45,799 bases of DNA from Bacteroidota bacterium (GTDB lineage Bacteria; Bacteroidota; Bacteroidia; UBA8524): contig WGMZ01000023.1 of NCBI GenBank assembly GCA_016124735.1, positions 1 to 45,799 of the forward strand, in the 5' to 3' direction. Below the pieces are notes generated by a model. That model was not told the origin of the DNA, ran no database searches, and worked only from the letters and a program-made list of their open reading frames with translations. Shown one piece after another: positions 31,840-33,255 of this stretch (the stretch's first letter is position 1; the number at the start of each line of letters is the position of its first letter). Position numbers and translations under genes: made by a program.

Positions 31840-32700
31840 TTAATCTTCTATTTCTTCACGGTATCTGCGCAAGACAGCTATGAGCCAATCTCCCAGATTT
31901 TCAGCCAGTGTTCCAATGGAGACTTCTTTCGGAAATGCCCGGCCTAACGGACAAAGTGGAAATCCCCATCTTAGCAGACACAGGTTCATAGCTATTCTCC
32001 ATTCTTGTTCATGGTTGGTTGTTAAGTCTGTATAAAATCTTGCCAACGTGCTAAGATTTAAACCATTTCCAGGCCATTCTATATCGGACCAATCAGGAAT
32101 CAGCTGTTTCATCAATTTGTTTTGCAGGGAAGATTGAAGATGAGAACCCAGCGATTCGACATCTTTCAGCCATTGGTGCATCGTATGGAGGCGCAAATGA
32201 GCTGGGAAATCATGACCCGACACGGTTTTTCCTGCTGTTATTACCTGTTCAATTTCTTCTTCCGACCATTGATGTTCGAAAGCAATCCACTCCTGCAAGA
32301 TGCGGCGATGTCTATTTAAAGTATGCCTGACAGGAGAGAGGTCAGTAAGCCAGGAGTTTAATTTTTCTTCCTGTTTTTGAGAAATACGCGTTCCTGCCTG
32401 TTCAAACAAGGATTGGGACTCAATGGTGCCATTCAATAAAGAAAGAGCTTTTTCTCGTATGCCTGCATTATCCTCTTCTATCCAAACCTTTTTCATCTTC
32501 TCACTGAGCCAGGTAGTAAGAAGAGCTTCCTGATTGATGGACAATGCATTTGCCAAACGCAATATATGGTCGCGGGTAGGTATGCGGTTGCCATTTTCAT
32601 AGCGGCTGACCAAACTTGCATCCAGACCCGCGCGGATTGATACTTCCAAAATGCTAAGGTTTTGGTCCAATCGTTGCGTTTTTAATTGCTGTGCGAGCAT
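31840..32700 (-). CDS. XRE-type regulator fused to a probable degenerate Fic domain
   Basis: A 286-aa protein. An N-terminal helix-turn-helix (about residues 1-60, SIRAGLDASLVSRYENGNR) is clear. The rest looks like a decayed Fic fold: IAFEHQWSEEEIEQVI (138-153) aligns with the SxxIEGN-TLTxEE inhibitory helix, with E142 at the Glu position; GKTVSGHDFPAHLRLHTMHQWL (157-178) aligns with the flap that follows it in Fic proteins. RIAMNLCLLRWGFPLCPL (235-252) aligns with the helix after HPFxxGNGRxxR, but that motif itself is missing. It is thus probably catalytically dead and works as a regulator. Its promoter lies inside a CATGAC palindrome, and gpx is divergent. HTH is certain; the Fic relation is inference. 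Confidence 0.72.
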   Translation of the reverse strand: MLAQQLKTQRLDQNLSILEVSIRAGLDASLVSRYENGNRIPTRDHILRLANALSINQEALLTTWLSEKMKKVWIEEDNAGIREKALSLLNGTIESQSLFEQAGTRISQKQEEKLNSWLTDLSPVRHTLNRHRRILQEWIAFEHQWSEEEIEQVITAGKTVSGHDFPAHLRLHTMHQWLKDVESLGSHLQSSLQNKLMKQLIPDWSDIEWPGNGLNLSTLARFYTDLTTNHEQEWRIAMNLCLLRWGFPLCPLGRAFPKEVSIGTLAENLGDWLIAVLRRYREEIED

Positions 32701-32712
32701 GACTTAGAAAGA

Positions 32713-32731
32713 CATGACAAAAATAGTCATG
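32713..32731. promoter_or_regulatory. Operator palindrome CATGAC-N7-GTCATG over the XRE promoter
   Basis: CATGAC (32713-32718) and GTCATG (32726-32731) are inverted around AAAAATA. On the minus strand the -7 box TATTTTTG occupies 32718-32725, inside the dyad. A third CATGAC lies at 32698-32703 over the XRE start codon and a GTCAT at 32768-32772 in the gpx promoter. This is the expected layout for an autoregulated XRE repressor. Confidence 0.65.
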
Positions 32732-32778
32732 CTTTCCAGTGGAGCAAACATTAGTGAGGCTATAATTGTCATCTTTGC

Positions 32779-33255
32779 ATGCAGGTTTTTGATTTGAATA
32801 AGGCATTGAATGTTCATGATTTTATCCCCGAAGAATTCAAGGGGAAAGTGCTGTTGATTGTTAATATTGCCAGTGAATGTGGCTTTACGCCTCAACTAAA
32901 AGGGCTGGAAAATTTGTATCAAACTTATAAGAATGACGGATTTGAAATTCTTGCATACCCAAGTAATGATTTTAACCAGGAACCCCTGAGTCAGGAAGGG
33001 GTTAAAAACTTTTGTTTGAATCAATTCCGGGTAAGCTTTCCAATCATGGAGAAATGCCATGTGAAGGGAAAAAATAAGGCTCCTTTATTCGATTGGCTCA
33101 GTGATTACGGCAAGAACAGAAGAAGCCGGTTTGCACCATTTTGGAATTTTCACAAATACCTGGTAGATCGCGAGGGTTGGCTTGTTGACTATTACTTCAC
33201 TCCGACCCGGCCGGAATCCAACAAAATCAAAAAAGCGATTGAAAAGCTTTTGTAA
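32779..33255 (+). CDS. Glutathione peroxidase (thiol peroxidase of the GPx family)
   Basis: A 158-aa GPx that reduces peroxides, most likely with thioredoxin. The peroxidatic cysteine is C34 in NIASECGFT; the glutamine and tryptophan/asparagine partners are in YPSNDFNQEP and FWNFHKYLV. A second cysteine in KNFCLNQF fits an atypical 2-Cys mechanism. It is divergent from the XRE/Fic-like gene and shares its 78-bp control region; TATAATTG (32761-32768) is the best -7 candidate. The adjacent CATGAC/GTCAT sites suggest common control. Confidence 0.92.
   Translation: MQVFDLNKALNVHDFIPEEFKGKVLLIVNIASECGFTPQLKGLENLYQTYKNDGFEILAYPSNDFNQEPLSQEGVKNFCLNQFRVSFPIMEKCHVKGKNKAPLFDWLSDYGKNRRSRFAPFWNFHKYLVDREGWLVDYYFTPTRPESNKIKKAIEKLL

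What the first reader, a model, noticed from the sequence alone, without database searches (positions are those of the whole stretch)
31840..32700. XRE repressor fused to a Fic-like domain that has lost the catalytic motif
Seen: after an N-terminal HTH the protein shows the inhibitory-helix Glu (E142), the flap segment GKTVSGH...AHLRLHTMHQWL and the helix after the core, but the HPFxxGNGRxxR motif is replaced by TDLTTNHEQEWR. Inference: a toxin-like AMPylator turned into a ligand-sensing regulator, fused on one chain rather than paired as in toxin-antitoxin modules.
Basis: inference. Interest (0 to 1): 0.6.

Follow-up and report, generated by a model that had tools for sequence, protein, structure and literature searches.

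The report
Autorepressor built from dead Fic enzyme
A small gene in a Bacteroidia genome encodes a DNA-binding repressor joined to a Fic (AMP-transferring) enzyme domain that has lost its catalytic loop, its target-docking hairpin and its safety-catch residue, yet it still carries the same pair of self-control operators as its enzymatically intact relatives, so a toxin-like enzyme seems to have been reduced to a pure regulator.

Summary
The core of the finding holds. The 286-aa ORF (31840-32700, minus) is an XRE helix-turn-helix joined to a degenerate Fic domain. Intact XRE-Fic fusions with HPFIDGNGR exist across Bacteroidia and align with it. With the HTH removed, the pseudo-only profile still matches them, and an AlphaFold model built without any intact Fic sequence has Fic structures as its top 27 Foldseek hits, though none is individually significant. 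Three genomes of the same genus or family carry syntenic orthologues, all without the motif.

Details needing correction: E142 is not the inhibitory glutamate, which is absent in all four. The "flap" named is the helix junction; the real beta-hairpin flap is deleted. Single-chain fusion is ancestral, not new.

New here: abutting 15-bp operators (O1 TGACTATTTTTGTCA, O2 TGTCTTTCTAAGTCA) lie at 32700-32729, over the -7 promoter box and the start codon. The same tandem operator precedes most intact XRE-Fic genes; O1 is identical in three. Other sites of this type in the genome are nearly all inside genes.

Best reading: an autorepressor whose pseudo-Fic part is a helical scaffold (dimerisation or protein binding). 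Nucleotide sensing is unlikely. Silencing of incoming XRE-Fic modules is a live alternative.

The parts
31840..32700 (-). XRE-pseudoFic ORF, 286 aa
   Evidence: syntenic orthologues L002, L003, L004
32497..32700 (-). XRE HTH domain, about residues 1-68; recognition region DASLVSRYENGNRIPTRD
   Evidence: Pfam HTH_31 8.5e-9, HTH_3 7.8e-8; D27 and R39 invariant across 24 intact and pseudo proteins
32233..32310 (-). remnant of the Fic inhibitory-helix region (residues 131-156); inhibitory Glu lost
   Evidence: alignment A4: F141 aligned without gaps with the Glu of SNRIEGN; S, A, L in orthologues
   Evidence: G157, T159 and H168 invariant in all 24 proteins
32056..32145 (-). position of the deletion that removes the beta-hairpin flap (residues 186-215 replace about 80 residues of intact XRE-Fic)
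   Evidence: flap identified by alignment of L005 to FICD 4u04 and PMC3667792
31996..32031 (-). TDLTTNHEQEWR, replaces HPFIDGNGRTSR; catalytic loop deleted
31954..31989 (-). MNLCLLRWGFPL, counterpart of the helix after the Fic motif (MNLILLKHGYII)
32715..32729 (-). operator O1 TGACTATTTTTGTCA
   Evidence: identical to the operator of intact XRE-Fic L005, L037, L096
32700..32714 (-). operator O2 TGTCTTTCTAAGTCA, directly abutting O1, ends on the A of the ATG start codon
   Evidence: 7 of 8 conserved half-site bases; same offset in L002, L003 and most intact XRE-Fic
32718..32725 (-). putative -7 promoter box TATTTTTG (consensus TAnnTTTG) inside O1
   Evidence: sequence; consensus from PMC9723704; inferred start of transcription near 32713
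32779..33255 (+). divergent glutathione-peroxidase-like gene; O1 lies 49 bp from its start codon
   Evidence: gene name from its sequence, not run against a library; absent between the same neighbours in L002/L003
31264..31815 (+). conserved neighbour, uncharacterised secreted protein, marks the syntenic locus

Best explanation
The gene descends from a FICD-like class II Fic enzyme fused to an N-terminal XRE repressor. In one Bacteroidia family the enzyme was dismantled (catalytic loop, flap hairpin and inhibitory Glu all lost), while the DNA-binding domain, its tandem operator and the helical core of the Fic fold were kept. It most likely works as an autorepressor: XRE dimers bind O1 and O2 side by side, cover the -7 box, the transcription start and the start codon, and shut off their own promoter and possibly the divergent neighbour. 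The pseudo-Fic domain serves as a dimerisation or protein-binding scaffold and not as an AMPylator or nucleotide sensor. Shown: homology, motif loss, operator conservation, synteny, open frame under selection. Inferred: DNA binding, repression, dimerisation, absence of catalysis.
For: Profile of the four pseudo proteins against 395 genomes: the strong hits beyond the HTH are XRE-Fic proteins of about 350 aa with HPFIDGNGR. HTH-stripped comparison: hhalign E 2.4e-5 over 186 columns; 17 of 19 intact proteins beat 950 shuffles. Domain-only AlphaFold model (pLDDT 75, pTM 0.69, no intact Fic in the alignment): top 27 Foldseek hits are all Fic, TM to query about 0.5 for most; full-length model has FICD as second hit. 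Tandem operator in the window, L002, L003 and most intact loci; 21 TGAC-N7-GTCA sites in 76 kb of intact XRE-Fic loci, 0.79 expected. Operator-like sites elsewhere in the own genome are nearly all inside ORFs. Pseudo proteins form one clade, support 96/95. C-terminal codon positions 2 vs 3 differ (54 vs 89 of 122, p 8.5e-6), and a neutral drift simulation leaves the frame open with probability 5e-5. Precedent: CccR, a Fic-HTH protein, represses its own promoter through palindromes near its promoter boxes (PMC9755527).
Against: No single Foldseek hit reaches E 0.001 (best 0.019 full length, 0.10 domain only). The reverse search (intact profile against the window domain) is only the top of 1000 shuffles at E 0.15. 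Only four orthologues are known. L004 has a weaker O1, and its codon-position contrast with the window is not significant. The C-terminal domain evolves fast (27-34% identity to the window, against 52-77% for the neighbouring proteins), so constraint is weak. No binding or expression data exist.
Confidence: 0.62

Rival explanations
1. Trans-silencer or immunity protein: because the window's O1 is identical to operators of intact XRE-Fic genes, the pseudo-Fic repressor silences incoming XRE-Fic modules at their promoter and may also form inactive mixed dimers with the enzyme.
For: O1 identical in L005, L037 and L096. HTH recognition region conserved. None of the five family genomes holds an intact XRE-Fic protein. 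The intact type is scattered across families of the class.
Against: Absence in five genomes is no evidence of exclusion. No such silencing was tested. Autoregulation alone explains operator conservation.
Confidence: 0.15
2. A decaying remnant: the Fic domain is on its way out and the protein has no selected role beyond avoiding harm, autorepression being a leftover.
For: Low identity of the C-terminal domain (27-34%) and large deletions; gene absent from G003 at the same locus.
Against: Open frames in four genomes of two genera, syntenic. The neutral simulation expects 9.4 stops, P(no stop) 5e-5. Second codon positions are conserved relative to third in five of six pairs. Operators retained.
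Confidence: 0.14
3. The protein still has an enzymatic activity of a changed kind, as the degenerate but toxic Fic2 of Campylobacter fetus.
For: Degenerate Fic2 is still toxic (PMC5651007); AvrB lacks the motif yet binds ADP and a peptide (PMC2686095).
Against: Here the whole loop and the flap are deleted, not substituted. The catalytic His is absent in the three orthologues, and only the window has a His (residue 230) near that place.
Confidence: 0.04
4. The C-terminal part is an unrelated all-helical domain that joined the XRE head and only resembles Fic.
For: No Fic hit in Pfam in any of the four; no PDB hit by profile; individual Foldseek E-values not significant. The same XRE head is joined to other domains (L054, L055).
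Against: All top 27 structural hits are Fic; sequence register agrees on both sides of the deletions; shared G157, T159, H168; shared operator and shared domain order.
Confidence: 0.05

Closest known systems
XRE-Fic fusion proteins of Bacteroidia (FICD-like class II Fic with N-terminal HTH_3; L005, L036-L052)
   Same: Domain order, XRE head and linker, tandem operator with -7 box inside O1, Fic core register
   Different: Intact HPFIDGNGR, SNRIEGN inhibitory motif and flap hairpin; about 350-360 aa rather than 286; not at this locus where checked (G014)
CccR of Yersinia pseudotuberculosis (PMC9755527)
   Same: Fic and HTH on one chain; negative autoregulation through palindromes near its promoter boxes
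   Different: HTH is C-terminal; Fic domain active (AMPylates FtsZ); T6SS secreted
SoFic of Shewanella oneidensis (PDB 3eqx)
   Same: Class II Fic protein; deposited as a Fic-domain transcriptional regulator
   Different: Active Fic; not an N-terminal XRE protein
Human FICD / C. elegans Fic-1
   Same: Best structural matches of the pseudo domain and best sequence matches of the intact relatives
   Different: TPR domain in place of XRE; active; eukaryotic
Campylobacter fetus Fic2 (PMC5651007)
   Same: Degenerate Fic motif
   Different: Point changes only, still toxic, no DNA-binding domain described there
AvrB (PMC2686095)
   Same: Fido fold without the motif
   Different: Keeps and enlarges the hairpin, binds ADP and a peptide; plant-targeted effector

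Membership tests
Fic (Fido) enzyme family | HxFx(D/E)GN(G/K)R motif | tested here: not met
   Replaced by TDLTTNHEQEWR with the loop deleted; also absent in three orthologues
Fic (Fido) enzyme family | beta-hairpin flap next to the active site | tested here: not met
   Deleted in all four; all-helical model
Fic (Fido) enzyme family | Fic helical core fold | tested here: met
   Foldseek top 27 all Fic, but E 0.1-1.0; hhalign E 2.4e-5; support is collective, no single structural hit is significant
Class II Fic proteins | N-terminal inhibitory helix with (S/T)xxxE(G/N) | tested here: not met
   Inhibitory Glu absent in all four
Fic (Fido) enzyme family | AMP transfer or nucleotide binding | not testable with these tools
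   needs biochemistry
XRE-family repressors | HTH_3-type DNA-binding domain | tested here: met
   Pfam HTH_31 8.5e-9, HTH_3 7.8e-8
XRE-family repressors | palindromic operator at own promoter | tested here: met
   O1 and O2, conserved with relatives
XRE-family repressors | binds operator and represses | not testable with these tools
   needs gel shift and reporter
Two-gene Fic toxin-antitoxin module (FicTA, Phd-Doc) | separate antitoxin gene next to the Fic gene | tested here: not met
   Neighbours are a secreted protein and a glutathione-peroxidase-like or NlpC-like gene

The most novel reading that the evidence does not exclude
A chromosomal pseudo-Fic repressor kept as immunity: it recognises the shared O1-O2 operator of horizontally moving XRE-Fic modules, silences them on entry and poisons their enzyme by mixed dimers, a one-gene anti-toxin-module device made from a dead copy of the module itself.
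Probability: 0.14. Interest if true: 0.7.

Novelty: new variant of a known kind. Interest (0 to 1): 0.5.

Why it matters
Pseudoenzymes are common among kinases, but Fic domains that lose activity outright and persist are little described, and I found no paper on one kept as part of a repressor. The intact relatives with the same operator give a ready comparison: they let one ask what the Fic scaffold adds to repression once catalysis is removed. The tandem operator over the -7 box and start codon also gives a testable control rule for XRE-Fic genes across Bacteroidia, which are otherwise only annotated as Fic proteins.

Tried and rejected
Regulon: TGACNNNNNTTGTCA sites in the own and four related genomes lie nearly all inside ORFs apart from the ones before this gene; one more intergenic site in the own genome lies between a TetR-like and a LysR-like ORF but lacks the TA..TTTG core. 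Intact XRE-Fic in the same genomes: none, only other Fic types. PDB search with the pseudo domain profile: no hits. RNA families in the window: none. More orthologues: genome-contig scan and phylum-wide search gave no further ones. Intact XRE-Fic on plasmids: matches cover only the Fic part, none covers 80% of the protein, so plasmid carriage of this fusion was not shown. Reading the upstream ATGACTATTTTTGTCATG as coding (as the tblastn hit does, with a TAA inside) rejected, since the operator explains the similarity. Papers searches for known XRE-Fic pseudoenzymes found no direct match.

Full report
What is in the sequence. The ORF at 31840-32700 (minus) encodes 286 aa. Residues 1-68 are an XRE HTH. 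No Pfam, NCBIfam or PDB model matches the rest significantly. The host is a Bacteroidia genome of 3.1 Mb; the nearest named records are Bacteroidia/Bacteroidetes MAGs.

Relatives. A search of 40 related genomes found three orthologues at the same place in the genome: L003 and L002 (same genus) and L004 (same family), 36-40% identical, between the same neighbours. None has HPFxxGNGR. A fourth genome of the family, G003, lacks the gene at this locus. A profile of only these four proteins, run on 395 genomes of the class and 396 of the phylum, hit proteins of about 350-360 aa from the HTH through to the middle of the protein. Those with fetched loci are XRE-Fic fusions with HPFIDGNGR (one with HPFMDGNGS, L056), and Pfam confirms Fic in the two that were tested (E 6e-23 for L005, 3.2e-21 for L016). 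The Fic part of L005 is closest, among solved structures, to human FICD (E 2.2e-36).

Is the C-terminal part really Fic? With the HTH removed, profile-profile comparison gives E 2.4e-5, probability 75.6%, over 186 columns in the expected register. In a control with 950 shuffled and 19 reversed sequences, 17 of 19 intact proteins score above all of them. In the reverse direction the window domain tops 1000 shuffles, but only at E 0.15. A domain-only AlphaFold model made from the four pseudo sequences alone (pLDDT 75, pTM 0.69) has Fic proteins as its first 27 Foldseek hits: FICD, C. elegans Fic-1, C. difficile Fic_0569 and Dde_2494. TM to the query is about 0.5 for most, probability up to 0.99; the first other fold is at rank 28. 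No single E-value is below 0.001. Taken together I accept the homology, at about 95%.

What was lost. Intact proteins read YTFESNRIEGNTLTLKETDLVINEGLTISGKTMREHL; the window reads LQEWIAFEHQWSEEEIEQVITAGKTVSGHDFPAHL. The inhibitory Glu is F141 in the window (gap-free register) and S, A or L in the orthologues; E142 is one place off. The stretch AGKYRSVQVMIKGSAHVPP is missing. Aligned on FICD, it is the beta-hairpin flap, which in Fic enzymes registers the target chain and helps form the base pocket (PMC3667792). The loop PFIDGNG is deleted, so that the window's only nearby His lies eight residues before the MNL helix start, where intact proteins have about fourteen. Loss of motif, flap and inhibitory Glu together fits an enzyme that no longer needs restraint.

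Operators. Upstream of the gene lie two abutting 15-bp palindromes, O1 TGACTATTTTTGTCA (32715-32729) and O2 TGTCTTTCTAAGTCA (32700-32714), the latter ending on the A of the start codon. O1 holds TATTTTTG, a match to the Bacteroidota -7 box TAnnTTTG (PMC9723704). In 22 intact XRE-Fic loci TGAC-N7-GTCA occurs 21 times in 76 kb, in 20 of the loci, just upstream of the XRE-Fic gene; 0.79 expected. The random-region control is inflated because those loci contain the real site. O2 sits at the same offset (mean 5.7 of 8 conserved bases against about 2 at most other offsets). L002 and L003 keep both; L004 keeps a strong site directly before its start codon and at best a degenerate one upstream of it (read by eye). 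In the own and related genomes the other TGAC-N5-TTGTCA sites are nearly all within ORFs, so control seems local.

Constraint and history. On an HTH tree the four pseudo proteins form one group (support 96/95), consistent with one loss event. Second codon positions of the C-terminal part are conserved relative to third positions in five of six pairs (per-position rates). Neutral drift at the observed divergence would give 9.4 stops. The protein still evolves faster than the neighbours.

Mechanism. Most likely an autorepressor in which the pseudo-Fic core is a dimerisation or partner-binding scaffold. CccR shows that a Fic-HTH protein can repress its own promoter, and Kinch and colleagues suggested that HTH domains fused to Fic may regulate fic expression (PMC2686095). 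Trans-silencing of intact XRE-Fic modules is possible because the operator is shared, but it is untested. Nucleotide sensing is unlikely.

Novelty. Fic-HTH fusions and degenerate Fic or Fido domains are both known. The combination, an XRE-Fic stripped to a regulator with the ancestral tandem operator kept, I have not found described in the held literature: new variant of a known kind.

Noticed in passing
L055 1492-2082 (+) and 2075-2413 (+): The same type of XRE head and linker is joined to an MNT nucleotidyltransferase, followed by a HepT-like gene, with TGACAAAATTTGTCA 56 nt upstream. The autorepressor head seems exchangeable between toxin-like effectors.
   Followed up: partly
L054 406-1764 (-): The same type of XRE head fused to a D12-class adenine DNA methyltransferase; no operator of this type found in 150 nt upstream.
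   Followed up: partly
L056 976-2034 (-): XRE-Fic with HPFMDGNGS, the motif Arg replaced by Ser, and no clear operator upstream; possibly an independent early loss.
   Followed up: no
window 32715-32779: O1 lies 49 bp from the start codon of a divergent glutathione-peroxidase-like gene, which could share control; in L002 and L003 the divergent gene is NlpC/P60-like instead.
   Followed up: no
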